Shown piece after piece: positions 19,584-64,000 of a stretch of 64,000 bases of DNA. This stretch comes from an uncultured Methanobrevibacter sp. (lineage in GTDB: Archaea > Methanobacteriota > Methanobacteria > Methanobacteriales > Methanobacteriaceae): contig ONSJ01000006.1 in the NCBI GenBank assembly GCA_900320515.1, positions 1 to 64,000 on the forward strand, written 5' to 3'. Under the pieces are notes generated by a model. It did not search any database. It was not told the DNA's origin and saw only the letters and a program-made list of their open reading frames with translations. The position numbers and the translations under genes are program-made. Position 1 is the stretch's first letter. Each line of letters starts with the position of its first letter.

Positions 19584-19592
19584 GGTGATAAA

Positions 19593-20564: not shown

Positions 20565-20668
20565 AATTTCTTTTTTTTAGCAATTGATATATAATATTAA
20601 AACAAACATATGCTATAGATACATTTTACATTGTTTTAAGTGTAATCCGTTAATCTTTGGTGAACATT

Positions 20669-25393: not shown

Positions 25394-25526
25394 GTTTTCG
25401 TGTCCAATTTTGCATTTTTCAATTCTTCAAATGATACCTATTTATATTATAAAAAACTGATATAACTATATTCTATACATTTAGCCAATTTTTTGTGTTC
25501 AAATTGGTGCGATGGGGGTAAATTGT

Positions 25527-29717: not shown

Positions 29718-29726
29718 GTGATTTAA

Positions 29727-32700
29727 TTGCGTGGGAATAAATTATTGCTATTATTTTTAATAGTTTTAATTTCTTTACTGGTTATTCCTTCAGCTTTTGG
29801 TGCGGATAACAAAACAGACAGTCTGGATTCCAGTCTGGACGCTCAACCTATTTGCGATGACATTTATTTTGACTCCAATGCTTCAGATGATAATGGAAAT
29901 GGAACGATTGATAATCCCTATAAAAATATGGGCAATGGAAGAATCACCGACAACTCCGTTGTTCATCTAAAGAACGGAAACTATGACATTTTGCAATTCA
30001 GCTCCTATAGAAACATTTCAATCATTGGTGAGGATGCACCAGATACCGTTATCAGGGGCAGCGGAGGTGTTTTGGTTGCCAATTCACGTTTGTCTTTGGC
30101 GAATGTCACTATCTGCAACCTGAATATATTGAATCAGGGAGATCTGATTGCCTCAAATTCCATTTTTGCCAACTCTTCTGCCTTATCCAACAGCCAAAAG
30201 AGCACAAGCTGCGGGGGAGCCATTTACTGTGCACGCTCTAGCTACAATGTATATCTGACAAATTGTTCCTTTGTAAATAACCGTGCAGCCTGTGGAGGTG
30301 CAATCTATTTGAACGGAGGCATTCTGGAGGCATCTGATTGCAGTTTCATTAAAAACACTGCTTCAGTTTATGGCGGGGCAATTGCATGGGAATCCAATTA
30401 TTTCAACGGCAACAGGATTGTGATTAAGCGTTCAAAGTTCACAGAAGATGTTTCTATAAAGGATGCGGGCGGCGCAATTTATCTCAAGTACGGACAGCTG
30501 GCCGCTGAGGATTTAAACATTTCCAATTGCCAGGGATGTTTTGGAGGAGGATTCACTCTTTTAAGCTGTAACGCTTCATTGACAAACATTTCAGCATTCA
30601 ACAATTCCGCAAAATATGATGGGGGAGCCATATATCAGTTTTACGGTAATCTGACATTGAACAATTCTTTTTTATCAGGCAGTCATGCCAAAAATGGGGC
30701 AGGATTATTCGTCTGCAATTTGGATATGCTTTCTGTCAATAATGTTTCCTTTGTAAATAACACTGCCGATTTGCTTGCAGGAGCCTTTTATTCTCTTGTA
30801 AATGAGTTATATGAATTTAACAATATCACATACCTGAACAATTCCGCTTTGCAGCATAATGATTTGTTCAATCAGGGCAATATATCACTGATATTTTCAA
30901 GCGGCAATTATTCTATGTATTATCATGCCGGTTCCAATTCAACTCTTCCAAGCTATTACAGTTCCTTGGATGAAGGGTATGTAACTCCAGTCAGAAATCA
31001 AATGAATGGGGGCAACTGCTGGGCTTTTGCTGCATTGGCAACCCTTGAATCTGCCATATTGAAGGCTTCAGGCAGGGAGCTTGATTTGTCTGAAGAGAAC
31101 ATGAAGAATTTGGCATCCATCTATTCCTATTACGGCTGGTCAATGGACACCAACAGAGGAGGTTATGATAATATGGCATTCGGTTATCTTACAAGCTGGC
31201 TTGGACCTGTACTTGAAACGGATGATGTATATAACGACCTGAGCGTATTGTCACCCGTATTGGACAGCGTTTTGCATGTTCAAAACATGTTGTTTTTAAA
31301 TAAGACTTCAAATGACAATTTGGATTCAATCAAAAGGGCAATTATGGATTACGGAGCGGTGTTTTCTAAAATTTACATGTATTCCCATTATGATTCTGCC
31401 GTTAAGAAGTATGTCCAGTACTATAATGGATTTCTGTCAGGCAATCATGCGGTTTCACTGGTCGGCTGGGACGATGATTTTTTAATTCCCGGAGCTCCTG
31501 GCAAGGGTGCATGGATAGCAAAGAACAGCTGGGGCGCAAACTGGGGAAATGACGGATACTTTTACGTTTCATATTACGACAGGTCATGCCCTGCCCTTGG
31601 AGAAAGTGAAGGGGCAATCGCATTCGTATTCAATGACACCATAAGGTATGACAAGAACTATCAGTATGATTTGGCAAAAACCGATTACCTTTTTAACAAC
31701 ACCACCACAGTTTGGTATAAAAACCTATTCACAGCAACGGATGATGAATATCTGGCTGCCGTTTCAACATACTTTGAAAAAAGCGCCGATTGGAATATGA
31801 CAATCAACATAAATAATGTTTCAAGGGCAATGAAGTCTGGATTTTCACATCCTGGATACTACACATTCAATCTCGATGAGATGATTCCTCTTGCTGTGGG
31901 GGATGTATTTGAGATAATATTTAAAATTACAGTCAACGGAGATGCAGGAGTTCCTATTTCAGAGATTATAAGCCTTAACAACATTTATTACAGTGAAAAT
32001 ATTTCATTCATAAGTTATGATGGCAATTCATGGACTGATCTCTTTAATTTGACTTGGAAATATCCAAACCACACTTACAACTCACAGGTTGCATGCATTA
32101 AGGCCTTCACTGTTTCAAATCCGATAAACACTACATTGAAATTGTCCATTGAAAACAGAACAGACGACTGCGCAGATATAATCGCCCATGTATTGAACCA
32201 GTGGGGATATCCGTGCTCAGGCAATGTAACATTCACTGTCGGAAATCAGACATATGTCGTCAAATCGGTAAACGGCATAGCTAAAAAGCACATTGATTTG
32301 GTAAATGCAAGCCTGTCTGCAGAATTTGATGCTGTAGGATATGTTTCATCAAGGGTTGACCTTGAACTGCACAATCCATTGGTTGAGACAAACATTTCCC
32401 TCATTATTGATGATTTCTACAATCCGTTGAACGTCACTGCAGTCATACGCGATTCAAACAATGAATATGTAAGATTCGGATATGTGACTTTCATCATTGA
32501 TGGTGAGGAATACGTTGTAAAGGTGTCAAACGGCACTGCAAAACTTGAAAACATCAATGTCTTTCCGCTAAAATTGAATGTTTCTGCATTCTACAGGGAT
32601 TCGTTTTACTATGACTCATGCAATGTCACTCAATCAATCGAAATGTTGAGGATCAATACAAAAATCAAACTCAATATCACTTCACCAAGCGAAGCCAACA

Positions 32701-34214
32701 ATCCAGTAAATGTCAGGGTGGCTGTGCTTGATTTGGATGACAATCCTGTCAATGGCGGCTGGGTGTATCTTGATATGGATGGGGACCTCTATGCAATTGA
32801 AGCTGATGACGGTGTGGTGGAAATCAATCATATATTCTTAAGCACCGGAATCAAGACAATCAAGGTAAGCTTTGATGATGTCTATCTTTACAATTCATCA
32901 AATGCATCTGAAACATTTAACGTTTCAAAAATCAGGGTCACTCCGTCACTAAATTTTGTCATCGATAAAACTCGTGTGGCTTTTGGTGTAGAGCTTGGAG
33001 ATGCAGTAAAGGAATTTGAAGCCATTCTCCATGTAAACGGCACTGACTATAATGCCACATCCAAAAGGGGTCTTGCCATATTCGAGATTATAGACCTTGA
33101 TTATGGAACCTATGACTATAGCATAAGATTCATAAGCGACATCTATGAGGCCAAAGACTTTAACGGCGAGTTTAACATTACCGTTCACAAAACCCGGTTA
33201 AACGCTTCAGATGATTATATATATTATAATGGAGGTTACGTCGTCGAGCTGAAGGACATGCTTGGCCGTGCGGTTGCTGGCAGGCCGCTCAATTTGACTG
33301 TAGGTGGAAAAACATACAATCAGACAACTGACGATAATGGAATTGCAGTTTTCCGCCTTGCTTTGATGAGCGGAGATTATTATGCAGTAATATCATTCGG
33401 AGGGGATGACGATTACAGCAAGTCCAGGCTGACAGCCACTATCCGGTCAAAATCAACAATAGATTTCATCAATAATGTTTATTCATTCAATTCAAGATAT
33501 TCTGCTGTTTTGCTCGACTCCAATGGCAGCGCAATTGCAAACAGGAAGGTTCAGGTGCTTTTAAACGGAGCGATGCATGAAGTCTACAGCGACAACAACG
33601 GCCAAATCTCATTAATCATCAATTTAAATCCGGGAAGTTATGAGGTCAGGATAACTAATCCTGTTTCCGGTGAGGTCAAAACACACTCAATCAATGTCGT
33701 AAAGAGAATATCCCAAAACGGCGATTTGAAAATGTATTACGGTGCAGGCAAGCTCTATAAGGTTAGGGTTTGCGATGACAACGGAAATTTCATTGCCGGA
33801 CTTAATGTCAAGTTTACCGTTGCCGGAAAAACATTTTACTCAAAAACCGATAAGAACGGTTTTGCATCCTTAAAGATTAATCTGAAACCCGGAACCTATA
33901 GGATTTATGCTGAATATAAAGGCTTCAAGGCATCAAATAAGATTGCAGTCAAAACAACATTAATCACTAAAAACATCAAGGTCAAAAAGGGAAAGACAAT
34001 CAGATTTACTGCAAAACTTCTAAACAAGAACGGAAAAATCCTTAAAAATAAGAAAGTCACATTCAGGTTTAAAGGCAAAACTTATAAACTTAAAACTAAT
34101 AAAAAAGGTATTGTTACTTTAAAGATTACCAAAAAATATAAGGCTGGAAAATATTCCATCCTCACTAGTTATGGCAAATTGAAAGTTAAAAACACTATTA
34201 GAATTAAAAAATAG
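29727..34214 (+). CDS. Adhesin-like protein with C1 peptidase, paralogue C
   Basis: A secreted 1,495-residue protein. It has a signal peptide ending near SAFGA, a beta-helix region (GGAIY, GGAIA and similar), and a C1 peptidase with QMNGGNCWAFAA, NHAVSLVGW and AKNSWGANWGNDGYFYVSYYD. It then has an Ig-like repeat series and the Lys-rich tail (KKGKTIRFTAKLLNKNGKIL). The start codon is TTG 10 bp after the stop of B, with AGGTGAT overlapping that stop, so B and C are translationally coupled. It is close in length and sequence to D, pointing to a recent duplication. The surface role (adhesion, protein processing) is inferred from domains. Confidence 0.84.
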   Translation: MRGNKLLLLFLIVLISLLVIPSAFGADNKTDSLDSSLDAQPICDDIYFDSNASDDNGNGTIDNPYKNMGNGRITDNSVVHLKNGNYDILQFSSYRNISIIGEDAPDTVIRGSGGVLVANSRLSLANVTICNLNILNQGDLIASNSIFANSSALSNSQKSTSCGGAIYCARSSYNVYLTNCSFVNNRAACGGAIYLNGGILEASDCSFIKNTASVYGGAIAWESNYFNGNRIVIKRSKFTEDVSIKDAGGAIYLKYGQLAAEDLNISNCQGCFGGGFTLLSCNASLTNISAFNNSAKYDGGAIYQFYGNLTLNNSFLSGSHAKNGAGLFVCNLDMLSVNNVSFVNNTADLLAGAFYSLVNELYEFNNITYLNNSALQHNDLFNQGNISLIFSSGNYSMYYHAGSNSTLPSYYSSLDEGYVTPVRNQMNGGNCWAFAALATLESAILKASGRELDLSEENMKNLASIYSYYGWSMDTNRGGYDNMAFGYLTSWLGPVLETDDVYNDLSVLSPVLDSVLHVQNMLFLNKTSNDNLDSIKRAIMDYGAVFSKIYMYSHYDSAVKKYVQYYNGFLSGNHAVSLVGWDDDFLIPGAPGKGAWIAKNSWGANWGNDGYFYVSYYDRSCPALGESEGAIAFVFNDTIRYDKNYQYDLAKTDYLFNNTTTVWYKNLFTATDDEYLAAVSTYFEKSADWNMTININNVSRAMKSGFSHPGYYTFNLDEMIPLAVGDVFEIIFKITVNGDAGVPISEIISLNNIYYSENISFISYDGNSWTDLFNLTWKYPNHTYNSQVACIKAFTVSNPINTTLKLSIENRTDDCADIIAHVLNQWGYPCSGNVTFTVGNQTYVVKSVNGIAKKHIDLVNASLSAEFDAVGYVSSRVDLELHNPLVETNISLIIDDFYNPLNVTAVIRDSNNEYVRFGYVTFIIDGEEYVVKVSNGTAKLENINVFPLKLNVSAFYRDSFYYDSCNVTQSIEMLRINTKIKLNITSPSEANNPVNVRVAVLDLDDNPVNGGWVYLDMDGDLYAIEADDGVVEINHIFLSTGIKTIKVSFDDVYLYNSSNASETFNVSKIRVTPSLNFVIDKTRVAFGVELGDAVKEFEAILHVNGTDYNATSKRGLAIFEIIDLDYGTYDYSIRFISDIYEAKDFNGEFNITVHKTRLNASDDYIYYNGGYVVELKDMLGRAVAGRPLNLTVGGKTYNQTTDDNGIAVFRLALMSGDYYAVISFGGDDDYSKSRLTATIRSKSTIDFINNVYSFNSRYSAVLLDSNGSAIANRKVQVLLNGAMHEVYSDNNGQISLIINLNPGSYEVRITNPVSGEVKTHSINVVKRISQNGDLKMYYGAGKLYKVRVCDDNGNFIAGLNVKFTVAGKTFYSKTDKNGFASLKINLKPGTYRIYAEYKGFKASNKIAVKTTLITKNIKVKKGKTIRFTAKLLNKNGKILKNKKVTFRFKGKTYKLKTNKKGIVTLKITKKYKAGKYSILTSYGKLKVKNTIRIKK

Positions 34215-34225
34215 GATTGGTCTTT

Positions 34226-37200
34226 ATGCTTAAACGTAAATTGCTGATATTATCGGCAATGTTCCTAATTTTGCTGGTTGTTCCATCAGTATTTGCACAG
34301 GAAAATGCTACCGATAGTCTTGAATCCAGTGCGGATGCTCAAGCACTTTCCAGTGACTTTTACTTCGACAGCAATGCCACAAACGACCACGGCGAGGGAA
34401 CTGTTGACGATCCTTACAGGGAGCTGCGTGATGGCAGAATCCTTGACAACTCAGTGATTCACCTTAAAAATGGGGAATATGAATTTTCACAGATTGACGC
34501 CCATACCAACGTTTCATTCATCGGTCAGGATGCATCAAAGACAATCGTCAGAGGCGATGGAGGAGCTTTAACTGTCAATTCTCCGCTTGTTTTGACAAAC
34601 ATTACCATTTGTAATCTGAACATATTTGTTCAGGGGGATTTCACCGCTTCAAATGTTATTTTTGCCAACACTTCATCAGTCAAGACAAGCAAATACGGAA
34701 ACGGTTTGGGCGGGGCAATCTATTGCGCAAATGACAAAGCCAATGTCCATTTGACCAACTGCACATTCATCAATAACCGTGCCGGCTGTGGAGGAGCCAT
34801 TTATTTTAACGGAGGAGTCCTGGAAATCACTGATTCCACATTCATCAACAACACTGCCATGAATTACGGCGGGGCAATTGCCTGTGAGTCCAAATATTCC
34901 AGGGATATAAGACTGACAGTCAAACGCTCCAAATTCATCAATGACAGATGCATCAAGGATGCCGGCGGTGCTGTTTATATCAAATCAGGAACATTTACAG
35001 GTGAGGATTTGGAAATCTCTTCATGCAATGCTACTTTTGGTGGGGCATTTGCTCTTTTAAAGTCATATGCCAATTTGAACAACATTAATGCCTTTGCCAA
35101 TGTGGCCAAATATGACGGCGGCGTCATCTATCAGATTTACGGAAATCTGACATTAAACAATTCAATATTTTCCAATAACTATGCAAAAAACGGTGGGGGA
35201 TTGTTTGTTGATGCGTCATATCTTCTTGATGCATGCAATAGTTTATTCATAAACAATTCGGCCGATTTGCTTGCAGGGGCATTCTATTCACTTTCAAACG
35301 ATTATTCAGATTTCAACAATCTCACTTACATTAACAATACTGCCGGGGCATATGATGACCTTTTTAAACAGGACAACGAATCTTTAATATTCACCGGAGG
35401 CGACTACACATTATACAATCATGTGCATGATGAATCTCCGCTTCCAAGCTATTACAGCTCTGTTGATGAAGGATACGTCTCTCCTGTTAAAAATCAGCAG
35501 AATGCAGGCAACTGCTGGGCATTTGCCATATTGTCAACTCTTGAATCAGCAGTGTTGAAGGCATCAGGAAATCTTGATCTGTCAGAGGAAAACATGAAGA
35601 ATCTGGCGGCCCTCTACTCCCATTATGGTTGGTCAATGGACACCAATGAGGGAGGATATGACGATATGGGATTCAGCTATCTGACAAGCTGGATTGGCCC
35701 TGCTCTTGAAAAAGATGACGGATATACAGATTTTGGAGTGCTTTCCCCTATTCTGGATGATATTCTTCATGTTCAAAACATTCTGTATTTAAAAAGGTCA
35801 AGCCATTCCGATTTGAATTCAGTCAAAAACGCCATCAGGGATTATGGTGGGGTATATGCTCCAATCTATATGGTTGCATATTATGATTATACTTCTAAGA
35901 AATACGTGCAGTGCTATACCGGAGACCATATCTGCGACCATGCGGTCGTGCTGGTCGGATGGGATGACAATTTCCAAATTTCAGGAGCTCCTGGAAGGGG
36001 TGCATGGATAGCGAAGAACAGCTGGGGCAGTGAATGGGGCGATAATGGTTACTTCTATGTTTCATATTTCGACAACACATGCCTCAAACCGGGCAATGAG
36101 GGCACTGCAATTGCATTCATGTTCAATGACACCATGAAATATGACAAGAACTACCAGTATGATATAGCCAAAACCGATTATTTCCTCAACACTACAAAGA
36201 CCGTATGGTACAAGAACATTTTCAACGCAACAGACAATGAATATCTGGCGGCCGTTTCAACATACTTTGAAAAGAGCACCCGTTGGGAGCTCACAGTCAG
36301 CGTCAACGGCAATCTGAAATTGACAAGGTTGGGGGAGTCTCCTGCAGGTTACCGCACAATTGATTTGGGCCAGTTGCTGCCGGTCAGTGTCGGGGATGTT
36401 TTTGAGGTAATGTTTAAAATCACAGTTGAAGGGGATGCGGGTGTGCCGATTTCAGAAAAAATCAGCCTGAACAATCTCTTCTATCGTGAAAACATTTCAT
36501 ACATCAGCTATGACGGCAGGACATGGAGGGACCTCTTCAATATAACCTGGGATTATCCTGACCATACCTACGAGTCACAGGTGGCATGCATCAAGGCGTT
36601 TACAATTCTAAACCCTATAAATTCAACAATCTCACTGACATTTGAAGAGAGAACCTCAGACAGGATAACTATAGTTGCAAACATATTGAATCAGTGGGGA
36701 TACCCTATTGATCATGGAAAGCTTGATTTTAAGGTGGATGATGAAACCTACACTCTCGACATAGTCAACGGAGTTGCCAAAAAGCAAATAGATCTTAAAT
36801 CAGCAAATGTCACTGTTGAATTTGAAGATGTCGGCTACAGCCATTCCATGGCACATGCCGAACTGCATAATCCGCTCATCAACACTAGCATTGAGCTGAA
36901 CGTTACAGGCGAGCACAATCCTGTTAATGTCACCGCAAAGGTTGTGGATGAATACGGAAATCCTGTAAAATATGGAAATGTCATCTTTGACATTGGAGGC
37001 GTGAAATATGATGTGGATGTAGTTAACGGTACTGCAAAGCTGGAAAATATTATGGTATCACCTTTGAAATGCACAATCCATGCTCAATATGACGATTTGT
37101 TCTTCTATAAGCCTTCCCATGCCGACATGCCTGTGGAGTTGTCATTGATTAAAACAAAAATATCACTTAACATAACAACCAATGGGGCCAATAATCCTGT

Positions 37201-38704
37201 AAATATGGTTGCATATGTCACAGATTTGAACGGCACTCCCGTTGAAAGTGGAAGGATTGCATTTTTCATCTCAGGTGAGCTTTTCGTTTTGGATTTCACT
37301 GATGGAAGAGCATATATCAACCATACCTTCAAACAGACTGGCAACAATACAATTTCCGTAACGTTTTATGACAATGGAATTTACAATTCATCCGTTTATG
37401 CAGAAAGGCTACTTGTTTCAAAACTTAAGGTTAACATGACTTTAGACATTGCCATCGATGAATGTGATGCTTATCTGTCCGTTGGAGTTAAGGACTCCTC
37501 CAGAGGTTTCACTGTCAATCTTAGAGTCAACGGTGAAGACCACTTCTATTCAACAACCGAATCATATGTGTTATGCGACCTCAAAGGCCTCAAAATGGGT
37601 GACTATGATTATGTCATTGAACTGATAAGCCCTATTTATGAGGCGGATGACCTGGCAGGTTCGTTCCACATCAATCATCAAAACACTCGGATTGACGCTT
37701 CGGATGCATCAATTTACTATAACGGCGCTTACTCTGTTGTATTGAAGGATGAAAATGGAAATGCCATTGCGTATAGGGATGTTTACTTAACGGTCAACGG
37801 TCAGACAATCAAAAAGAGAACTGATGGTCAGGGTGTTGCTGTTTTTAATGTTGCTGCTCCTGTCGGATCTAACCAGGCAAAAATCAGTTTCATCGGAGAT
37901 GACGAGTACATAAAATCCTCAAAAACTATAAATATTGTTGTCAAATCTACAATTGAATTTGATTCATATACTTATGCACTTAATTCAAGGTATCTGGCCA
38001 CCTTAAGGGATTCAAACGGCAACCTGTTGATAAACAAGCAGGTAAATATGCTTTTCAATGGGGTTTCTTATAGTTTAATCACTGACGGAAAAGGACAAAT
38101 TTCTATAAACGTCAATCTGAATCCTGGAACATACTCTGTAAAAATAACAAATCCGGTTACCGGCGAGGTCAAAACCCAATCAATCAGTGTGGTCAAAAGA
38201 ATAACACAAAACAAGGACTTGACAGCTTATTACGGAGCAGGCAAGTACTATAAGGTCAAGGTTGTGGACGATTACGGCAAGACAGTTAAGGGATTGAAGG
38301 TCACCTTCAAGATAAATGGCAAAAAGTACTATGCATACACCAATAAAAACGGTTATGCTTCCTTGAAAATCACCCAAAAGCCTGGTACCTACACTATAAC
38401 TGCTGAATATAAGGGATATAAGGTATCAAACAAAATAAAGGTCAAATCCACAATAGTCACCAAAGACATTAAGGTCAAGAAATCAAAAGCCATCAAATTC
38501 AAGGCCAAGCTTCTCAATTCCAATGGAAAAATACTGAAAAATAAAAAAATCACTTTCAAATTCAAGGGAAAGACCTATAAGGTCAAAACAAACAAGAAAG
38601 GCATTGCGGTGTTGAAAATCACCAAAAAATACAAGAAGGGAAAATACACAATCACTTCAAAATACGGAAAATTGACAATAAAAAATAAGATAAGGATAGT
38701 GTAA
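34226..38704 (+). CDS. Adhesin-like protein with C1 peptidase, paralogue D
   Basis: A secreted protein of about 1,492 residues and the last of the four. The layout matches C: signal peptide (ending PSVFA), beta-helix repeats, C1 peptidase with QQNAGNCWAFAI, DHAVVLVGW and AKNSWGSEWGDNGYFYVSYFD, Ig-like repeats, and the Lys-rich tail. Here the residue before the catalytic His is Asp instead of Asn. An in-frame TTG at 34217 is possible, but the ATG at 34226 gives a standard N-terminus. It ends 4 bp from the convergent thymidylate synthase gene, so the two transcripts must overlap or terminate within each other. Confidence 0.84.
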   Translation: MLKRKLLILSAMFLILLVVPSVFAQENATDSLESSADAQALSSDFYFDSNATNDHGEGTVDDPYRELRDGRILDNSVIHLKNGEYEFSQIDAHTNVSFIGQDASKTIVRGDGGALTVNSPLVLTNITICNLNIFVQGDFTASNVIFANTSSVKTSKYGNGLGGAIYCANDKANVHLTNCTFINNRAGCGGAIYFNGGVLEITDSTFINNTAMNYGGAIACESKYSRDIRLTVKRSKFINDRCIKDAGGAVYIKSGTFTGEDLEISSCNATFGGAFALLKSYANLNNINAFANVAKYDGGVIYQIYGNLTLNNSIFSNNYAKNGGGLFVDASYLLDACNSLFINNSADLLAGAFYSLSNDYSDFNNLTYINNTAGAYDDLFKQDNESLIFTGGDYTLYNHVHDESPLPSYYSSVDEGYVSPVKNQQNAGNCWAFAILSTLESAVLKASGNLDLSEENMKNLAALYSHYGWSMDTNEGGYDDMGFSYLTSWIGPALEKDDGYTDFGVLSPILDDILHVQNILYLKRSSHSDLNSVKNAIRDYGGVYAPIYMVAYYDYTSKKYVQCYTGDHICDHAVVLVGWDDNFQISGAPGRGAWIAKNSWGSEWGDNGYFYVSYFDNTCLKPGNEGTAIAFMFNDTMKYDKNYQYDIAKTDYFLNTTKTVWYKNIFNATDNEYLAAVSTYFEKSTRWELTVSVNGNLKLTRLGESPAGYRTIDLGQLLPVSVGDVFEVMFKITVEGDAGVPISEKISLNNLFYRENISYISYDGRTWRDLFNITWDYPDHTYESQVACIKAFTILNPINSTISLTFEERTSDRITIVANILNQWGYPIDHGKLDFKVDDETYTLDIVNGVAKKQIDLKSANVTVEFEDVGYSHSMAHAELHNPLINTSIELNVTGEHNPVNVTAKVVDEYGNPVKYGNVIFDIGGVKYDVDVVNGTAKLENIMVSPLKCTIHAQYDDLFFYKPSHADMPVELSLIKTKISLNITTNGANNPVNMVAYVTDLNGTPVESGRIAFFISGELFVLDFTDGRAYINHTFKQTGNNTISVTFYDNGIYNSSVYAERLLVSKLKVNMTLDIAIDECDAYLSVGVKDSSRGFTVNLRVNGEDHFYSTTESYVLCDLKGLKMGDYDYVIELISPIYEADDLAGSFHINHQNTRIDASDASIYYNGAYSVVLKDENGNAIAYRDVYLTVNGQTIKKRTDGQGVAVFNVAAPVGSNQAKISFIGDDEYIKSSKTINIVVKSTIEFDSYTYALNSRYLATLRDSNGNLLINKQVNMLFNGVSYSLITDGKGQISINVNLNPGTYSVKITNPVTGEVKTQSISVVKRITQNKDLTAYYGAGKYYKVKVVDDYGKTVKGLKVTFKINGKKYYAYTNKNGYASLKITQKPGTYTITAEYKGYKVSNKIKVKSTIVTKDIKVKKSKAIKFKAKLLNSNGKILKNKKITFKFKGKTYKVKTNKKGIAVLKITKKYKKGKYTITSKYGKLTIKNKIRIV

Positions 38705-53375: not shown

Positions 53376-54224
53376 ATGATAAATGAGGTTATGATAAACA
53401 GACTGGATGAACTTATTGGAGACTATAACACTCCTTTTTTCAATTACCTGCTTTACTCTTATGACTTGAGCCTGAATGAATGTGAAAGCATAATCGATGA
53501 GCTGAAGGAGGACATCAGCTCAAGCAAGGTCGTCTCTGACAATATGGTGTCCACTCTGGATGCATATTTCAAGTCAAAAGTCGCAGATTTGGAAAAGCAG
53601 GAAAAGCTTAAATACCTGGATGGCCTCATTAGCGAAGATAATGGCTTTTACATTAAATACCTTAAAAAATATGACCTGCCTGCCGATGACATTTCCCTGA
53701 TTCGAGAAAGGGTCGAGTCCAAAATCATCGCCGACAACATAACAGACTTTGAAATCAAGAGATACCTTGAGTACTACTTTTCAAATTCCCTAAAGCAGAT
53801 TTCCTACATAAACGATCTGAACGGCATTGTCGGAAACAATTACGATACCCTTCTGATTCAAAACCAGAAGAAGACCTATCCGATTTTAAGGGACAAAGAC
53901 ATTGTAGATATCGTCTTTGCCATTCATGGTGAAATCATAGAAGCCAGGGAATTTAAAAACGGCATCAAGAATGAATTCAAAAGGCAGTGCATGATTAGAA
54001 GTGAGGACAAAAAGGCGAAATGCAGAAAAAACCTCAACAGGTTTGTTGTTGACAGTGGAGACTCCTTTTCAAAGCTGGTGGAATTCAAGGGCCTTGAAAA
54101 AAGGGACGGTGAGATAATAGTTTCGCAAATAATGGATGACATCTCAAAAGGTCTCGTTCAGCCCGAAATGATTGACGGTGTTTTCATAACCAGACGTTTC
54201 AACGATTACAATGAGAGACAGTAG
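53376..54224 (+). CDS. Unknown helical protein coupled to the helicase
   Basis: Unrecognised 282-residue soluble protein, mostly helical, with several similar stretches (EDISSSKVVSDNMVSTLDAY; RVESKIIADNITDFEIKRYL; GEIIVSQIMDDISKGLVQ) that may be a degenerate helical repeat. A basic patch (KKAKCRKNLNRF) lies near residue 213. It overlaps the helicase gene by 14 nt, so the two are translationally coupled and probably act together. No clear ribosome binding site precedes the ATG at 53376; a second ATG lies at 53391 with GAGGTT unusually close. Confidence 0.65.
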   Translation: MINEVMINRLDELIGDYNTPFFNYLLYSYDLSLNECESIIDELKEDISSSKVVSDNMVSTLDAYFKSKVADLEKQEKLKYLDGLISEDNGFYIKYLKKYDLPADDISLIRERVESKIIADNITDFEIKRYLEYYFSNSLKQISYINDLNGIVGNNYDTLLIQNQKKTYPILRDKDIVDIVFAIHGEIIEAREFKNGIKNEFKRQCMIRSEDKKAKCRKNLNRFVVDSGDSFSKLVEFKGLEKRDGEIIVSQIMDDISKGLVQPEMIDGVFITRRFNDYNERQ

Positions 54225-57200
54225 CGTTTTTACTTTCCTGAAAAGTAAGTATGAAAATTTATATGACCTGTGCACGGTCATGGAAAAACTGATTGTTCTT
54301 GAAAGATACGGCCTAGCCATGGCTGTAGCCAAGATAATCCTTGATCTGTTCTGCCGCCAGACAAAAAGGGAGCTTGTCTTCACGATTGATGTTTTCAATG
54401 ACGATTCACTGTCACTGAGTCGAAACGATTTGGAAAGCGTCCACAAAATACTTTTTGATTATATCTATAGGGACTATTTTGTCGGCCTTGATGAGTTTTT
54501 AAGGGTCGACTATGAATTCGATTTCACGTATTTGGGCAGCAATCCAAGAATAACCAATGATGACGTTTACCTTATAGTCGACAATCTTGAGGTTGACTCT
54601 GTAGCTCCGGCCCTGGTGGGTCTTGAGGGTGATGATTTGATATCCATTGAGGATCTGGACGCAGAGGATAAGAAGAGGACATTGGATATGGTTGAGGAAA
54701 ATCTCAATCGGTTCATAAGGACTCATATCCTGACACTTGATTTGTTTGACAGCGAGGGAAATCCAATTTCACGGCCGCTCAACTTCGAAGCTGTCAGAAA
54801 GGCCGACAGGTGTGCCGTTCGAGAGATTCCCCCTGATGTCGAGCTTGATGAATTTCAAAGGGATGCAGTGGAATATATTGGAAAGCCCCTGGTGATCAAT
54901 GCGGGACCGGGTGCCGGAAAAACACGGGTGATCATTGAAAGGGTGCTTTATCTGATTGAAAACGGAGCAGAACCCGAATCCATACTTGTTATCACATTCA
55001 CCAACAAGGCCGCCGATGAGCTGAGGGAGCGATTCAAAAAGGACACCAAGCTGGAGCTCAACGTCATAAACCAGATGAGGATAAGCACAATCCACAGCTT
55101 CTGCAGGTCAATCCTATCGGATTTCTGTGACATTCCATATAACCTGCTTAAGAGGGAATCCGAAAGGAACCTCTTTTTCAACAAGCACAGAGGGGACCTG
55201 GGCTTTACGGGTCCCGCATTTCTTCGAAACTACGAATCCGGACAGGTCCTAAAAAAGTATGAGGAATATGCATTGTTTGAGGTTGACTCAAAGGCGCTTA
55301 TAGAATATATCGAATCTAAGTACCGGCCAAGCGAGGAATACCTTGAATACATTGACGGGTATTACCAAACACACTCTCACAACCAGTATCCGACAAAAAA
55401 GGAAATCAAGGCAAGGCACTTTTCATGCGATGTCTACAAGGCACGTTACCTGCAGATTGCCAAATCATACAGGGACTGGATTGAGCTTATGGAGGCGGAG
55501 CACGTCTGCGACCAGAATTATCTTCTCATCAAGGCACTGGAGATACTTTCAGATAAGGACAACCTGAAGCAGGTCCAGTACCGCAATGTCCTGATTGACG
55601 AGTTTCAGGACACCGACGCCATTCAGATGCAGATATTCGAACACTTAAGAAGCATTTCAGACACCTTCACAGTTGTCGGCGATGCGGACCAGAGCATATA
55701 CTCCTTCAGGGCGGCAAATCCGAAATTCTTCAACGACTATGCGAAAAGCGATGAGTTTGAAAACAGGATTCTTGTAAACAATTACCGCTCGACTTCAGAC
55801 ATAGTCGAGTTCAATGAAAGGTTCATAAGCCCGAAGCGTTCAAATCCCAAGGATTTAAAGGCGGTCAACGAATCCAAGATGCCGGTCTACATGCTTGAAA
55901 ACAGGAAGGATGATGAATACCGGGGAATTGCATATATTGTCAAGAACCTGAAAAGCTCCGGAAAGATCGCCAAATACAGTGATGTCTGCATTCTCTTCAG
56001 AAGCCACAAGGACAAAAAGGACATCCTCGAGGAATTCGAAAAGGAAAACATCCCATATTACCTTAAGGGAATTGACGATCTGATTTATCAGGATGAGGTG
56101 AAGGCTGTGCTTGCCCTTCTTTGGTATATGCTCCCATTTGACCCGACACGCATTGCATATTACGGGGATGGGGGCCAGTGGATAAACCTCTCGTCATTCA
56201 CTGATATCTACTATGAATCCTCAAAGGTCTTCAGGCTTTCAGCCAAAACCCAGGACATCCTCAACGACATCGAACGCAGGTTCCATGCAAATGTCGTAAG
56301 CGTCAAAAGCAGTTTCAAGCCCCTTGATTCCTCCTCAAGGTCATCATCGATAATGGACGTGGTCAGGGACTTTGCAGACGATACCTTGGAGGAGATATTC
56401 AGCAGGGTCGGTCCGGTCGATTTGAGCACGTTTTCACGAAGCGAGCTTGCAGGAATCGGAATAACCGACGAGCATGACCTTGACTTCTTTTCGGATTTAA
56501 ATGAGCTTAAATCATCCCTTGGCGAGGTGAGAATGTCCTGCCTTGAAGTGTTTTATGAGCTTATAAGGATAACAGGCTTTGCAGATGAGCTTTTCTCAAG
56601 AAGCGACTTTGAAGCCAAGAAGGCGGCCCTCAACCTTGCGTTGATATCCGAAATAATCTCGGATTATGAAAACATCATGGGAAAATACGACCTTATCGGA
56701 CTTTTCAATTATCTCTACCGTTCGCTCAAGTACTACTCATGTCCGATCAATGAGGAGGAGGACAACTCCCAGAAGGTCCATATCATGACTGTCCACAAGG
56801 CAAAGGGCCTTGAATATCCCGTGGTGATAACCGCTTCAATCAAGGACAGAAGCTTTCCTCTTACATTTTCCCCTCAGAGGAAGAATCATGTATTCAACAA
56901 CTATCCTGTCTATCCGACCCCAAACAGGTTTTTGAAATACAAGATATCCGAAAAGCTGGAGCCCTTCGAGTTCGACCGTGAGGAGGAGAGGGTGGTTTAT
57001 GTTGCAAACACCCGTGCAGAGGAGCTTTTGATACTTTCGACAGTGCTTCCAAGGACAGGTAGCAGAACCCCTCAGGTGCTCAGGGACTATGAAGATGAGC
57101 TGGTCAAAATCGAGCCTTCCGATGTATTTGACATGAAAAAAGTCACATCCCACATGGTCAGGGACACCAATCTCTTCAACCAGATCGATTTTGAAAACAT

Positions 57201-57882
57201 CCTGGAGGATTACCTGTTCTGCCCGCTGAGGTACAACCTCGAAAGCAACCTCAAGTTCAAGAATCCCAAAAACATCGACAAGTTCATCGACTCAAAGCTC
57301 AGGATAATCGTCAACCGGCTGCACAATGAGAATTTCATGACAGAATGGGACAGAAACGCCATTGAAAACCTCGTATCTGAGGTCATCAAATCATACTCAT
57401 TCGCCTCCGGTGAAAAGAACTTAAAAAAGCTCTTCAATCACTTTGCAGACTACTGGCAGGACTACGGCAGGAACTTTGACGTCATAAGGACATCCCATCC
57501 TGTAAGCCTTGAGGTGGGAGGATATGACATAAACGGCGTCATAGACCTGATGGTGAGTGACGGTGACGGCGTGAGCCTGGTTCACTTTATCCGCACACGT
57601 GACGAGATGAAGAACTACCATTCATTTTACATGGAGCTTCTGGGCTATTATGCGCTGGCGCTTAAGGAAAGGGAAGACGTTGACGTTGAAAACCTGATGC
57701 TTTATGTTCTCGATGAGGGAAAGCTCTATGAAAGGGAATTTGTCAAAAGCGAATTCATTTTGGAGTATCTGGCAAGTGTCGTCGACAACATATCCGAGGA
57801 TAACTACTCCAGGCATTACGTAAGCTGCGGGGAGTGTGAGTTCAACGGTCTCCTGTGCCAGAACAGTAATCTATTTAACTGA
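54211..57882 (+). CDS. UvrD/Rep-type helicase with AddB-like Fe-S C-terminus
   Basis: A 1,223-residue superfamily 1A helicase. After an unknown N-terminal region (1-210) come GPGAGKT (Lys237), TFTNKAADELRERF, LIDEFQDTD (Asp463, Glu464), VVGDADQSIYSFR, HTVHKAKG-like MTVHKAKGLEYP and VVYVANTRAEELLIL. The C-terminal domain resembles AddB/RecB nucleases with four Cys placed for an iron-sulfur cluster (Cys1004, 1206, 1209, 1216). Asp in GVIDLM is kept, but the D-x-K motif is replaced in LVHFIRTR, so nuclease activity is doubtful. The role may be DNA repair or defence. It is coupled to the unknown gene upstream and lies 20 bp before a TPR gene. Confidence 0.88.
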   Translation: MRDSSVFTFLKSKYENLYDLCTVMEKLIVLERYGLAMAVAKIILDLFCRQTKRELVFTIDVFNDDSLSLSRNDLESVHKILFDYIYRDYFVGLDEFLRVDYEFDFTYLGSNPRITNDDVYLIVDNLEVDSVAPALVGLEGDDLISIEDLDAEDKKRTLDMVEENLNRFIRTHILTLDLFDSEGNPISRPLNFEAVRKADRCAVREIPPDVELDEFQRDAVEYIGKPLVINAGPGAGKTRVIIERVLYLIENGAEPESILVITFTNKAADELRERFKKDTKLELNVINQMRISTIHSFCRSILSDFCDIPYNLLKRESERNLFFNKHRGDLGFTGPAFLRNYESGQVLKKYEEYALFEVDSKALIEYIESKYRPSEEYLEYIDGYYQTHSHNQYPTKKEIKARHFSCDVYKARYLQIAKSYRDWIELMEAEHVCDQNYLLIKALEILSDKDNLKQVQYRNVLIDEFQDTDAIQMQIFEHLRSISDTFTVVGDADQSIYSFRAANPKFFNDYAKSDEFENRILVNNYRSTSDIVEFNERFISPKRSNPKDLKAVNESKMPVYMLENRKDDEYRGIAYIVKNLKSSGKIAKYSDVCILFRSHKDKKDILEEFEKENIPYYLKGIDDLIYQDEVKAVLALLWYMLPFDPTRIAYYGDGGQWINLSSFTDIYYESSKVFRLSAKTQDILNDIERRFHANVVSVKSSFKPLDSSSRSSSIMDVVRDFADDTLEEIFSRVGPVDLSTFSRSELAGIGITDEHDLDFFSDLNELKSSLGEVRMSCLEVFYELIRITGFADELFSRSDFEAKKAALNLALISEIISDYENIMGKYDLIGLFNYLYRSLKYYSCPINEEEDNSQKVHIMTVHKAKGLEYPVVITASIKDRSFPLTFSPQRKNHVFNNYPVYPTPNRFLKYKISEKLEPFEFDREEERVVYVANTRAEELLILSTVLPRTGSRTPQVLRDYEDELVKIEPSDVFDMKKVTSHMVRDTNLFNQIDFENILEDYLFCPLRYNLESNLKFKNPKNIDKFIDSKLRIIVNRLHNENFMTEWDRNAIENLVSEVIKSYSFASGEKNLKKLFNHFADYWQDYGRNFDVIRTSHPVSLEVGGYDINGVIDLMVSDGDGVSLVHFIRTRDEMKNYHSFYMELLGYYALALKEREDVDVENLMLYVLDEGKLYEREFVKSEFILEYLASVVDNISEDNYSRHYVSCGECEFNGLLCQNSNLFN

Positions 57883-59322: not shown

Positions 59323-59554
59323 ACTTGAATATAGGATTTTTTTGTTTAAAAACATTGGCAATACTGTGCTTGAATACAACAAATTTAAATAGGATTAAAA
59401 TATATTATTTAAATGAGGAAACATATCTCATGTTTTCTTTTAAAAAACACAATATATGTTATCAGTATTAAACGGATTATTGCCTGGTTTTACATGATGG
59501 CTGGGCAATATTAATACTGTTTTTGGATTCTTTTTTTATATTAAGGCGATATTG

Positions 59555-59827
59555 ATGGATGATGAAACATTGAAGATATTTGCTTACGTTAATATTTCCT
59601 CGTATAGGGTCAGAAGCGTAAAGGCACTGAAAGGTGAGGTCAAAACTCCAACGGATATTGCAAGGGATGCAGACATCAAGCTTAATCATATCTCCAAGGT
59701 TCTCAGTCAGCTCAAGGACTGCGGCGTTGCGGTCTGTCTGAATGAGGAGGCATACCGTGGAAGAAAGTACAAGCTGACCGGCGTTGGAGAGGAAATCGCA
59801 GATCATCTTGACAATTTGGGGGATTGA
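59555..59827 (+). CDS. Winged-helix transcription regulator
   Basis: A 90-residue DNA-binding protein of the MarR/ArsR-like winged-helix type: VRSVKALKGEVKTPTDIARD leads into the helix-turn-helix, with the recognition helix around KLNHISKVLSQLKDCG and the wing in EEAYRGRKYKLTGVGEEIA. The ATG at 59555 follows TTAAGGCGATATTG. The stop is 1 bp from the start of the next gene, which carries the two-repeat domain, so the pair is one operon and may form a regulator/ligand-sensing unit. Confidence 0.8.
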   Translation: MDDETLKIFAYVNISSYRVRSVKALKGEVKTPTDIARDADIKLNHISKVLSQLKDCGVAVCLNEEAYRGRKYKLTGVGEEIADHLDNLGD

Positions 59828-59828
59828 A

Positions 59829-60203
59829 ATGAAATTTTCAGGATTCATGAACGTGTATCTTTTGGATGACATGAGCTGGGAGTACCAGTTCGCCGACAGG
59901 TCACTTAAGGCTGGGACACTTGAGGAATTGGAGCTTCTGGTAAATCTGTACGGATTGAAATGGAATATTCTCGATGAGAATCTGGCAAAAGAATCCCTAG
60001 AAATCGACAGGAATAATCACAGCGGATTTTTAAATGTCTATTTCAAAGATGATGCATGGTATTACAGGGGTTCGGATTTAAAGGCAACCAGCCTTCAGGT
60101 ATTGAAGAAGAGGGTTCTGGCCAGGGGTTTGGAATGGAAGGAAACCGATAGGGATCTTGCATATAAGACATGGAAACTGGACTTGAGACGCTTTGAAAAG
60201 TAA
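59829..60203 (+). CDS. Protein made of two copies of the shared ~50-residue domain
   Basis: A 124-residue cytoplasmic protein that consists almost wholly of two tandem copies of an unexplained domain (about 3-60: SGFMNVYLLDDMSWEYQF, LKAGTLEELELLVNLYGLKW; and 62-116: SGFLNVYFKDDAWYYRGSD, LKATSLQVLKKRVLARGLEW). The ATG at 59829 follows TTGGGGGATTGAA; an upstream in-frame start inside the previous gene is less likely. The same domain occurs in the 52,447 and 52,868 genes. It is coupled to the winged-helix gene before it. Confidence 0.75.
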   Translation: MKFSGFMNVYLLDDMSWEYQFADRSLKAGTLEELELLVNLYGLKWNILDENLAKESLEIDRNNHSGFLNVYFKDDAWYYRGSDLKATSLQVLKKRVLARGLEWKETDRDLAYKTWKLDLRRFEK

Positions 60204-60366
60204 TTCTTCTTTTTATATTTCATTATTTTTCAGTTTTGAGATGCAGTTTACTTGATTTTAATTTTAAATGCTAAATTTTTTAGATTTTACGATAACAGGT
60301 AAAAAGTTGTCCGAGTTCGTAAAATTGCTCCCGATTAAAACTTGATATTTTATATACTAGGAGGAC

Positions 60367-60397
60367 CAAGTAATATACATTGATTAGGTCAAGTAAT
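60367..60397 (+). promoter_or_regulatory. Direct repeats before the PIN-domain pair
   Basis: CAAGTAAT occurs at 60367-60374 and 60390-60397, about two helical turns apart, a short way downstream of TATTTTATATAC (60348). The layout suits a regulator-binding site near the promoter of the 60,464/60,952 operon. Confidence 0.35.
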
Positions 60398-60463
60398 GAT
60401 GGCTGATTTCTATTTGAAATGTTATTGATTATTTGATTTAACACCATTAATCGAGGTAAAAAA

Positions 60464-60952
60464 ATGATTTCACAAGAAAAAAATGAAACTGTCTCCAATA
60501 TTTTGAGTGATGCGGCTCAAAAGTCGTATGAGAAGATTAAAGCATTGATATTAAGAATATTCACATTGCTTAAAAGACAAAAAAATCAAAAAAATCTTAA
60601 GGAAGAGTTCTATGATTCCTATATAGATTTTGCAAGGAAATTAAAGTCGGAAGGTTATGATAACGAATGCTACAATTATATGGCGATTTGTGAAATGTAT
60701 TATCATTTGATTGATAGGCCTGAGGAATTAATTTCGCATGAAAAATTCTTCAATGATTTGTTCAATGCTTTTGATGGTCTGTTATCATCTACAATTAGCA
60801 AATCTGTTGATTATGATGAAAAATATGATGAATTCTTGTTGTATACTACAAAAATGCAGGAGTATTACTATAAGAATTTAGCAGTTCCTAGCAGGTCTTA
60901 TGATGAGGAGTGTTGTAATAAAATTATTTGCGGGTTATCCGGTGATTTTTGA
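60464..60952 (+). CDS. Unknown partner of the PIN-domain protein
   Basis: Unrecognised 162-residue soluble protein, A+T rich and helical, with a basic stretch (LLKRQKNQKNLKEEFYDSY) near residue 45 and many Tyr/Glu/Lys. The start follows AATCGAGGTAAAAAA. It overlaps the PIN-domain gene by 1 nt (TGATG), so translation is coupled. A toxin-antitoxin arrangement, with this as the antitoxin-like partner, is possible but the protein is longer than classical VapB and lacks a clear DNA-binding motif. Confidence 0.6.
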   Translation: MISQEKNETVSNILSDAAQKSYEKIKALILRIFTLLKRQKNQKNLKEEFYDSYIDFARKLKSEGYDNECYNYMAICEMYYHLIDRPEELISHEKFFNDLFNAFDGLLSSTISKSVDYDEKYDEFLLYTTKMQEYYYKNLAVPSRSYDEECCNKIICGLSGDF

Positions 60953-61620
60953 TGAAAAATGTTTTCTTAGACACTAATGTTCTTATCGCAATAATATTTT
61001 TAATTAATTCTCATTATCTAAAAGCAAAAGAAATATTTGAGTTATATCAGAATTATTACTGGTCAAATGGGGTTGTTAGAGAATTAAATCACCGATTTGG
61101 AGAAAAACAGATTAATCTAACTAAATTCTATATGGATTTAAAATTGTTTTTGGAAAATCCGGAAAAGGATTTGTATTCAAATAGAGATTTGTTAAATTTT
61201 GTAAAGAATCATTATTCAGAAAAATTGTTTGAAGACGCTAAAAATTCAGTTGAACCGTTTTGGAATAATTATATCGGTGTGGAATCAATGGTTCCGTTTT
61301 TTAATATTAAAACATCAATTGATTTTTGTTTAAATGATTTGAGAATTACCTGCGTAGGAAATAAGCAAAAATTAGAAAATAAATTGGTATTGGCACCTCA
61401 AAGAAATAATGATTATTCTCAGATTGATGCCATGCTTGAATCTTTAGGCGTTCATGAGGAGGACAGAAAAATCATATTGGACGGCCATGATTTTGCCTGT
61501 TTTTCCACACAGCCTGTTGATTTTGTAACATTCGATGACGATTGCTTCAATGGGGCAAAAAATATTGATTTGCTGTGCTTCAATTCAGTCAAGGGAAAAT
61601 ATGATTTCAGGGCATCATGA
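60952..61620 (+). CDS. PIN-domain protein
   Basis: A 222-residue protein with the PIN ribonuclease pattern: FLDTNVLIAIIF at the N-terminus (first Asp), VVRELNHRF (Glu) about 35 residues later, HDFACFSTQP near the end, and FVTFDDDCFNGAKNI (C-terminal Asp). PIN proteins cleave RNA in toxins and processing factors; it is longer than VapC (about 130). The ATG overlaps the previous stop and follows GGTGATTTTTG. Like its partner, its DNA is clearly more A+T rich than nearby genes, suggesting recent gain. Confidence 0.75.
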   Translation: MKNVFLDTNVLIAIIFLINSHYLKAKEIFELYQNYYWSNGVVRELNHRFGEKQINLTKFYMDLKLFLENPEKDLYSNRDLLNFVKNHYSEKLFEDAKNSVEPFWNNYIGVESMVPFFNIKTSIDFCLNDLRITCVGNKQKLENKLVLAPQRNNDYSQIDAMLESLGVHEEDRKIILDGHDFACFSTQPVDFVTFDDDCFNGAKNIDLLCFNSVKGKYDFRAS

Positions 61621-62417: not shown

Positions 62418-64000
62418 ATGAACGTAGAAGAATTACTTGGAAAATGCGAGATGCTGTCGGTTGACAAGGATTATGACGGCATCCTTAAATTATCACAGAA
62501 GGCCCTGAAATTGGATCCGGAAAATGTTGGAGCATTGTCATACAACGCAATGGCACTTTATTATCTGGGAGAATACCGCAGGACTCTGGAATGCCTCAAC
62601 AGGATATTGGAAATTGAGGGCGAAAACGACTATTTTGAATACTTCAAGGTAAAGGTGCTCATAAAACTCAACGTCAATGAGGCATACGACTTTTATGATG
62701 CCATAGGCAGTGACAGCCCCGACAAGAGTGTTACCCAATCCCTGGCCCATGCACTGATTGATGCTGAGGAATATGATAAGGCCCTTGAATGCCTGGACAT
62801 GCTGAATGAAACAAACTGGCTTTTCAGCTGCAGAATCATAGACGGCTACAAAAGGATTGAAAACCGCACCGGCAGAAATCTGAAGGACCGCTACGCCAGC
62901 GAGTTTCACATGTCCTGGATTGAAATGATAAAGTCCAGAAGCGACAGGGAAATATGTCCATTGTGCGGAGGGGATGACTTCAACAATCAGTTCAGCTTCT
63001 GCAACAACTGCTGTGAAGAGATACAGATGAGCTCCCAGGGCACTCTTATCGAATGCGACGACCTTAAAGTGTATTACTACATCTGCGATAAGCTAACTGT
63101 CCTCAAAAGGTTCCTGAAAGAACATGCCTTTTTGAAGAGCCTGCATGAGGAGATGGATTGCCTGGATGATGAGGAGTTCAGCGCATTCATCGAACACCTC
63201 AAAAGCATTGGTTATATCGTTGAGGCATCCAAGGGATACATCTGGGACGGTGAAATCATGTCATCAACATGCGAAGCCGGAAAGTATGCCGCTCCAAGAT
63301 GGCTGGCGTTTCCGGGATTCAGCGCATGGACAATAGGATGGAGAATGGGTGCAGGAGAGGACTACTGCATGAACCAGCCATATCAGGGAGAGCTCTTCGC
63401 CAAGCTGTTTCCGGAACCTAAAAACTGGAAGTTCAACCCGAGAAATCCGAAATTTAAAAATCTGCCAAAATTCCCATTTCTGGGAGCCGTCTGGGATGAG
63501 GATGTAAATCCAAAGTACTCAAAGATAACTGATGATGCGATTGAAGTCAACGATTTCATCACTTTGGATGCTGAAGGTGAGTTTAGGAATGACGCACATC
63601 ATTTCAATTCAATAGAGCACGCAATTCTCTTTTCAAAAATAGTCTCATACAACCGTAACCTTGACCCTTATAAGGTCACATTCGAGGAGCTCAAAAACGA
63701 TTTCACCATAACCGACGAGCAGCTGGCCGAATGGGAGGTGTTCAAGTATACAGTTTGCCTTAACGCCACATACTACAAGTTCATGCAGGATGATGAGCTA
63801 AAGCAAAAGCTGTTGGACACCGGAGATAAGTGCCTTGTCTATTCTTCAGATGACGAATGGGGAGGCGATGAAAATCTCTTCGGATTTGCACTTATGCAGG
63901 TCAGGGACGAAATCCGCAGATTATGCGAGCATGAGGACCTGATAGACTGGAGATACACCGAGTATCTCAAGTGCGCCTATCCCTACCTCAACCACAGAAG
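62418..64000 (+). CDS. TPR / zinc-ribbon / NADAR fusion protein (truncated at window end)
   Basis: An open frame of at least 527 codons that runs off the window. Residues 1-150 are TPR-like (YDGILKLSQKALKLDPENV, GEYRRTLECLNRILEIEG). A zinc ribbon follows (CPLC, 180-183; CNNC, 195-198). The region from about 375 to 520 matches the NADAR family (YbiA-like): FNSIEHAILFSKIV with the catalytic-type Glu400, YYKFMQDDELKQKLLDTGDK, LVYSSDDEWGGDENLFGFAL, and MQVRDEIRRL. NADAR proteins hydrolyse ADP-ribose adducts on nucleosides. No ribosome binding site precedes the ATG, so it may be leaderless. The end lies beyond the window. Confidence 0.75.
   Translation, partial: MNVEELLGKCEMLSVDKDYDGILKLSQKALKLDPENVGALSYNAMALYYLGEYRRTLECLNRILEIEGENDYFEYFKVKVLIKLNVNEAYDFYDAIGSDSPDKSVTQSLAHALIDAEEYDKALECLDMLNETNWLFSCRIIDGYKRIENRTGRNLKDRYASEFHMSWIEMIKSRSDREICPLCGGDDFNNQFSFCNNCCEEIQMSSQGTLIECDDLKVYYYICDKLTVLKRFLKEHAFLKSLHEEMDCLDDEEFSAFIEHLKSIGYIVEASKGYIWDGEIMSSTCEAGKYAAPRWLAFPGFSAWTIGWRMGAGEDYCMNQPYQGELFAKLFPEPKNWKFNPRNPKFKNLPKFPFLGAVWDEDVNPKYSKITDDAIEVNDFITLDAEGEFRNDAHHFNSIEHAILFSKIVSYNRNLDPYKVTFEELKNDFTITDEQLAEWEVFKYTVCLNATYYKFMQDDELKQKLLDTGDKCLVYSSDDEWGGDENLFGFALMQVRDEIRRLCEHEDLIDWRYTEYLKCAYPYLNHR

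What the first reader, a model, noticed from the sequence alone, without database searches (positions are those of the whole stretch)
62418..64000. TPR - zinc ribbon - NADAR fusion in a methanogen
NADAR domains reverse ADP-ribosylation of guanosine or handle NAD-derived metabolites and are usually standalone or paired with a DarT-like toxin. Here a NADAR-like core (Glu400 in the SIEHA-type motif, then KF-x-Q-type motif, WGG and GFALM-x-x-RDE) is joined to TPR and zinc-ribbon modules. No ADP-ribosyltransferase is visible in this window.
Basis: partly seen in the sequence, partly recalled or inferred. Interest (0 to 1): 0.6.

Follow-up and report, generated by a model that had tools for sequence, protein, structure and literature searches.

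The report
NADAR–pseudo-ART fusion beside ADP-ribosyl hydrolase
In a rumen-type methane-producing archaeon, a TPR/zinc-ribbon protein joins a diverged ADP-ribose-processing domain to a domain shaped like an ADP-ribosylating toxin but apparently without its catalytic residues, and the next gene encodes an intact-looking enzyme that removes ADP-ribose, so the pair looks like a device for recognising and undoing ADP-ribosylation rather than a lone oddity.

Summary
The ORF at 62418 is complete on the contig at 701 aa (62418-64523). TPR repeats, a zinc-ribbon-like CxxC pair and a NADAR domain (47.8 bits, cut-off 35.1) are confirmed; the architecture recurs in five other Methanobrevibacter genomes. 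Two things beyond the edge change the picture. (1) The last ~180 aa form a domain whose AlphaFold model matches ART-fold proteins only (top 50 PDB hits; best E 5e-7), although no sequence method detects it; by motif alignment the STS serine and the catalytic Glu are gone (FVDAS; Ile613). (2) Eight bases downstream lies an ADP-ribosylglycohydrolase (ARH, 4e-66) whose best PDB hit is the hydrolase of a Listeria ART-ARH pair. The NADAR keeps Glu400 and Lys407 but lacks the second catalytic acid (Tyr475), as do all 38 relatives aligned. In another genus the same ART-like domain, fused to an SseB-like domain, again adjoins an ARH. DarT is absent. Best reading: an ARH-centred de-ADP-ribosylation module with the 701-aa protein as recognition/adaptor subunit. 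Domains, residues and linkage are shown; function is inferred.

The parts
62418..64000 (+). the 701-aa gene; it continues to 64523 on the contig (L002 4419-6524), and an ADP-ribosylglycohydrolase gene of 298 aa follows at contig 64532-65428 (L002 6533-7429), outside the window
   Evidence: ARH: PF03747 4e-66, PDB 8za7_A 3.3e-70 and DraG 1.1e-30, gap 8 bp
62424..62870 (+). TPR helices, residues 3-151
   Evidence: Pfam TPR_19 1e-7; paired helices, pLDDT mostly above 90
62955..63014 (+). zinc-ribbon-like CPLC...CNNC, residues 180-199
   Evidence: sequence; CxxC pairs conserved in the TPR-bearing relatives; no Pfam zinc-ribbon family above cut-off
63279..63962 (+). extended, divergent NADAR core, residues 288-515 (Pfam-matched part 387-500)
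   Evidence: PF08719 2.5e-12; 38/38 relatives; 8bau 2.8e-8 with the profile
63615..63617 (+). Glu400, equivalent of E43/E88 of characterised NADARs; Lys407 follows at the +7 spacing of K50/K95
   Evidence: alignments; reference residues from PMC11543638
63840..63842 (+). Tyr475, at the position of the second catalytic acid (E125/D171)
   Evidence: alignment with canonical archaeal NADARs; Y 24, F 12, C 2 of 38
63975..64000 (+). first 26 bases of the C-terminal ART-fold domain region, residues 520-701, which runs to 64523 beyond the window
   Evidence: ORF in L002; AF2 pLDDT 88.5; Foldseek: top 50 PDB hits all ART-fold proteins, viral library mostly ARTs

Best explanation
The 701-aa protein and the ARH gene right behind it form a two-gene module that recognises and removes ADP-ribose from macromolecules modified by a foreign enzyme (for example a viral or competitor ART). 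The ARH is the working eraser. The 701-aa protein is the recognition/adaptor subunit: the fast-evolving TPR/zinc-ribbon half selects the target; the ART-fold domain, without its catalytic glutamate and serine, no longer transfers ADP-ribose but binds the modified (perhaps arginine) site or ADP-ribose; the NADAR domain binds, or less likely hydrolyses, an ADP-ribosyl group. Shown: the domains, the residue losses (the ART ones by motif alignment), the gene order, purifying selection. Inferred: the partnership with the ARH, the binding roles, the foreign origin of the modification.
For: 8-bp same-strand spacing and conserved VEF / SDD / DTDT active-site pattern of the ARH in alignment with DraG and Lmo0067. 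ART fold: best E 5.1e-7, top 50 all ART-fold. Independent linkage: in genus g9 the same ART-like domain behind an SseB-like N-terminus starts 16-81 bp after an ARH gene (L123, L124, L125; decayed in L126), in the opposite gene order. ARHs of G000, G056, G066, G072 and G045 form one clade, FastTree support 0.97, and lie beside TPR, NADAR or HTH genes rather than in the usual chromosomal block. dN/dS of the NADAR and ART-like regions is 0.07-0.28, while the TPR half changes faster (pN 0.31-0.33 against 0.11-0.19 in the L002 pairs). XopAI, the top fold match, is an ART fold unsuited to bind NAD+ that captures an arginine peptide instead (PMC6829252). PMC9503650 section 3.8 predicted ARG(=ARH)-centred, ART-free anti-ADPr conflict systems with SseB chaperones and occasional NADAR or Macro. 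Canonical ARTs occur in 31 of 139 genomes of the family, one apparently within a phage-type protein (L151).
Against: Of about 16 NADAR-ART genes only this one has ARH as next gene (in L051 the contig ends there), so the two-gene unit is not general, though 111 of 139 genomes carry an ARH somewhere. No Nudix/WYL regulator or phosphatase was identified here. No binding or activity data. ARH-family domains may also act elsewhere: in genus g12 one is fused to what looks like ThiE.
Confidence: 0.42

Rival explanations
1. An ART-ARH effector/immunity or toxin/antitoxin pair of the Tre1-Tri1 or Listeria (8za7) type: the C-terminal domain is an active transferase with unusual catalytic residues and the ARH protects the producer.
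For: Fold closest to Tre1 and XopAI, and 8za7_B is among the hits; the ARH is closest to 8za7_A; ART-like/ARH adjacency in two genera.
Against: The catalytic-Glu position is hydrophobic and the STS serine mostly Asp; the strand-1 Arg is His, Ser, Ile or Tyr in several subfamilies; most NADAR-ART genes have no adjacent ARH; no export signal noticed, and the TPR/ZnR/NADAR N-terminus is unlike a secreted effector.
Confidence: 0.15
2. An active NADAR hydrolase with a new substrate: Glu400/Lys407 plus a non-canonical acid hydrolyse an ADP-ribosyl base or an NAD-derived metabolite.
For: Glu400 is invariant in the 15 NADAR-ART proteins aligned and kept in 20 of 22 genus-g1 proteins; strong purifying selection.
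Against: Second catalytic acid lost in all 38; position 407 is Lys in 20, Glu in 12, Arg in 5, Gln in 1; in the 16 standalone g12 proteins Glu400 is not conserved although the gene is kept in a stable locus.
Confidence: 0.2
3. Metabolic or regulatory proteins of NAD/ADP-ribose homeostasis unrelated to conflict; the ARH neighbour is coincidental.
For: Standalone relatives of the NADAR core sit in a conserved block beside homoserine dehydrogenase- and phosphoglycerate mutase-like genes in genus g12; most NADAR-ART genes lack an ARH neighbour.
Against: Patchy distribution and shuffled architectures (TPR, SseB-like, no N-terminus); ARH clade tied to such genes; ART-like/ARH linkage in a second genus.
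Confidence: 0.23

Closest known systems
NADAR superfamily (YbiA, DarT1-associated NADARs; PF08719)
   Same: profile match above cut-off, Glu (E43/E88) and Lys (K50/K95) equivalents, N-x-x-G-x-x-L-M-x-x-R C-terminal motif
   Different: about 100 aa longer at the N-terminal side, second catalytic acid replaced by Tyr, fused to TPR, ZnR and an ART-fold domain, no DarT
ART-ARH effector-immunity pairs (Tre1-Tri1, 6dre; Listeria 8za7)
   Same: ART fold next to an ARH of the same family
   Different: catalytic Ser and Glu missing; the ART-like part is the C-terminus of a 701-aa protein with TPR and NADAR; pairing not general
ARG-centred counter-ADP-ribosylation systems (PMC9503650, section 3.8)
   Same: ARH without an active ART; links to NADAR here, to SseB-like and macrodomain-like genes in related loci
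   Different: archaeal; Nudix/WYL regulator and phosphatase not seen; contains a degenerate ART-fold domain
XopAI (PMC6829252)
   Same: ART fold with altered NAD site; top fold match
   Different: plant-pathogen effector; no sequence similarity detected

Membership tests
NADAR (PF08719) | profile score above the curated cut-off | tested here: met
   47.8 bits against 35.1
NADAR (PF08719) | catalytic Glu and Lys (E88, K95 of E. coli C7) | tested here: met
   Glu400, Lys407
NADAR (PF08719) | acid (or His in phage) in the last strand (E125/D171) | tested here: not met
   Tyr475; Y/F/C in all 38
NADAR (PF08719) | NADAR fold in the model | tested here: inconclusive
   good pLDDT, but the 50 Foldseek rows shown for the full model are filled by TPR and ART hits
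DarT1-NADAR toxin-antitoxin | adjacent DarT | tested here: not met
   no DarT in G000; none above cut-off in 139 genomes
R-S-E ADP-ribosyltransferases | ART fold | tested here: met
R-S-E ADP-ribosyltransferases | Arg of strand 1 | tested here: met
   Arg553 (YVRD) by motif alignment; not conserved in all relatives
R-S-E ADP-ribosyltransferases | STS motif and catalytic Glu | tested here: not met
   FVDAS and WGI at the anchor-aligned positions; alignment by eye on the F-K-V anchor
R-S-E ADP-ribosyltransferases | sequence-profile match | tested here: not met
   no ART family even at E 10; hhalign with five archaeal ARTs not significant
ADP-ribosylglycohydrolase (PF03747), the downstream gene | profile match and metal-site motifs | tested here: met
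   4e-66; alignment with 2woc and 8za7_A
ART-ARH effector-immunity pair | catalytically competent ART next to its ARH | tested here: not met
   ARH adjacent, but two of three catalytic residues missing; activity itself not testable here
ARG-centred counter-ADPr systems | ARH without coupled active ART | tested here: met
   no PF03496 or DarT in G000; other ART families not searched
ARG-centred counter-ADPr systems | Nudix/WYL regulator or phosphatase | tested here: inconclusive
   none among the neighbours scanned with Pfam; not all ORFs scanned

The most novel reading that the evidence does not exclude
An archaeal immune-type 'reader-eraser' in which a retired ART domain has become a receptor for ADP-ribosylated (arginine) sites, set beside a retired NADAR in one adaptor that hands the target to an ARH: toxin folds turned into detectors of the damage that such toxins cause.
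Probability: 0.2. Interest if true: 0.8.

Novelty: new variant of a known kind. Interest (0 to 1): 0.55.

Why it matters
Three unrelated ADP-ribose-handling folds (NADAR, ART, ARH) meet in one archaeal locus, two of them apparently without their usual catalytic sets. None of the papers found in the searches made here describes this fusion. If confirmed, it would give a first archaeal example of the predicted ARH-centred defence against ADP-ribosylation, and a test case for ART folds used as receptors. No sequence family covers the ART-like domain, so annotation pipelines will miss it.

Tried and rejected
Pfam, NCBIfam and PDB sequence searches for the C-terminal domain: no ART match. hhalign of the ART-like family against five canonical archaeal ARTs: not significant (E 0.02, probability 1%), thin alignment. 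Viral contigs with the NADAR-ART alignment: none; plasmids with the SseB-ART protein: none. DarT partner: rejected. Assembly chimera: rejected, the architecture recurs. A general NADAR/ARH operon: rejected, only G000 is directly adjacent; in G066 the ARH is the third gene downstream. The PADLOC hit PDC-M42C to the NADAR part is weak (21 bits) and adds nothing. Literature searches for Lmo0067, for the Listeria ART-ARH pair and for NADAR in Methanobrevibacter gave nothing relevant.

Full report
Observation. The ORF starting at 62418 is intact, and the window stops inside it. The contig (C44, 66,237 bases) carries it to 64523, 701 aa. Pfam finds TPR repeats and NADAR (2.5e-12, residues 387-500, above cut-off); CPLCGG at 180-185 and CNNCC at 195-199 give the zinc-ribbon-like pairs. 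Five other genomes of the genus have the same order (L036, L046, L047, L048 at 62-67% and L040 at 50% identity); others have NADAR plus C-terminal domain without TPR (about 420 aa), TPR-ZnR-NADAR without the C-terminal domain (about 570 aa), or the NADAR core alone. Named relatives are Methanobrevibacter MAGs, many from ruminants.

NADAR. All 38 aligned relatives match PF08719, and their profile finds the solved NADAR 8bau at 2.8e-8. Glu400 and Lys407 stand at the spacing of E43/K50 of the solved enzyme (PMC11543638). The second acid, needed there for efficient guanine de-ADP-ribosylation, is Tyr475 here and Tyr, Phe or Cys in every relative. Glu400 is kept in 20 of 22 genus-g1 proteins and in only 2 of the 16 standalone proteins of genus g12, which sit in a conserved block with homoserine dehydrogenase-like and phosphoglycerate mutase-like genes. 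Canonical guanosine-ADPr hydrolysis is therefore uncertain.

C-terminal domain. Residues 520-701 match no family. The full-length model (mean pLDDT 88.6) hit Tre1 (6dre_B, 6.6e-5), XopAI, Certhrax and ExoT besides TPR proteins. The domain alone (pLDDT 88.5) gives 50 of 50 top PDB hits to ART-fold proteins (one of them is an anthrax lethal toxin complex, whose lethal factor carries an inactive ART-like domain, from general knowledge), and mostly ARTs in the viral library. TM-scores of about 0.47 over some 95 residues mean a shared core, not close similarity. Against canonical ARTs of the same archaeal family (L150-L154) the anchors GSRFKV/NTKFKV, AGQIITEKAF/VGMIIDKKEF and YVRD/LYRG line up by eye; then STS is DAS (578-580) and the catalytic Glu is Ile613, while Arg553 is kept. 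Profile-profile comparison did not reach significance, so the residue assignment rests on these anchors. Across the 30 ART-like sequences aligned no glutamate is conserved at that place. dN/dS is 0.09-0.28 for this domain, so it is not decaying.

ARH. Eight bases after the stop starts a 298-aa ADP-ribosylglycohydrolase. Its best PDB match is 8za7_A (Lmo0067), part of an entry titled 'ART-ARH type toxin effector-immunity protein pair of Listeria monocytogenes'. The motifs VEF, WSDD and DTDT align with those of DraG and Lmo0067.

Linkage beyond this genome. A search of 152 genomes with the ART-like domain found it in 31. In genus g9 it is fused behind an SseB-like domain (recognised by eye) and lies directly after an ARH gene in L123, L124 and L125, decayed in L126. 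L127 has a NADAR-ART protein two genes from a macrodomain-like gene. The ARHs of L002, L074, L075, L076 and L078 group apart from the others, support 0.97, and are neighbours of TPR-MORN-like, TPR-NADAR or HTH genes. Against this, of the NADAR-ART genes only the one here has ARH as next gene.

Mechanism. An intact-looking eraser (ARH), two ADP-ribose-type folds without their full catalytic sets and a fast-changing TPR half fit an adaptor that recognises modified targets. XopAI shows that an ART fold can lose NAD+ binding and take an arginine peptide. PMC9503650 predicted ART-free, ARG-centred systems with SseB chaperones and sometimes NADAR or Macro, acting against foreign ADP-ribosylation. 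Canonical ARTs occur in 31 of 139 genomes of the family, one in what looks like a phage-type protein (L151), so a source of such damage exists. Everything beyond domains, residues, order and selection is inference.

Verdict. New variant of a known kind; interest 0.55.

Noticed in passing
window 54211-57882 (+): UvrD-like helicase, 1223 aa, matching PADLOC RTasHel and GajB models (best 4.9e-58), with a Cys-containing C-terminus; possible defence helicase about 4.5 kb upstream
   Followed up: partly
L014 610-1905 (-), G029: canonical NADAR fused to NAD synthase (PF02540 3.3e-53), a NADAR joined to NAD biosynthesis
   Followed up: partly
L100 6567-8144 (-), L101 5393-6964 (+): ARH domain fused behind what reads like ThiE, next to a ThiM-like gene, in genus g12; a warning that ARH need not mean protein de-ADP-ribosylation
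   Followed up: no
L093 1561-2721 and L096 7607-8926 (-): TPR proteins with MORN-like repeats overlapping the start of an ARH gene; a similar one follows TPR-ZnR-NADAR in L067
   Followed up: partly
L151 301-1974 (+), G096: 557-aa protein with phage-like head-protein sequence and a canonical ART C-terminus (STS, ExE)
   Followed up: no
L044-L071 (genus g12 loci): standalone 250-aa NADAR-like protein without the catalytic Glu, with a C-terminal Cys/His cluster, in a conserved housekeeping block; a pseudo-NADAR kept as a core gene
   Followed up: partly
window 20657-38704 (+): four large tandem paralogues (1401-1578 aa) with repeat and papain-like motifs, probably surface proteins
   Followed up: no
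window 18174-20564 (+): by eye a nicotinamide phosphoribosyltransferase-like gene followed by a choloylglycine hydrolase-like gene
   Followed up: no
window 59552-61620 (+): small HTH and PIN-like genes whose relatives recur near NADAR genes in other genomes of the genus
   Followed up: partly
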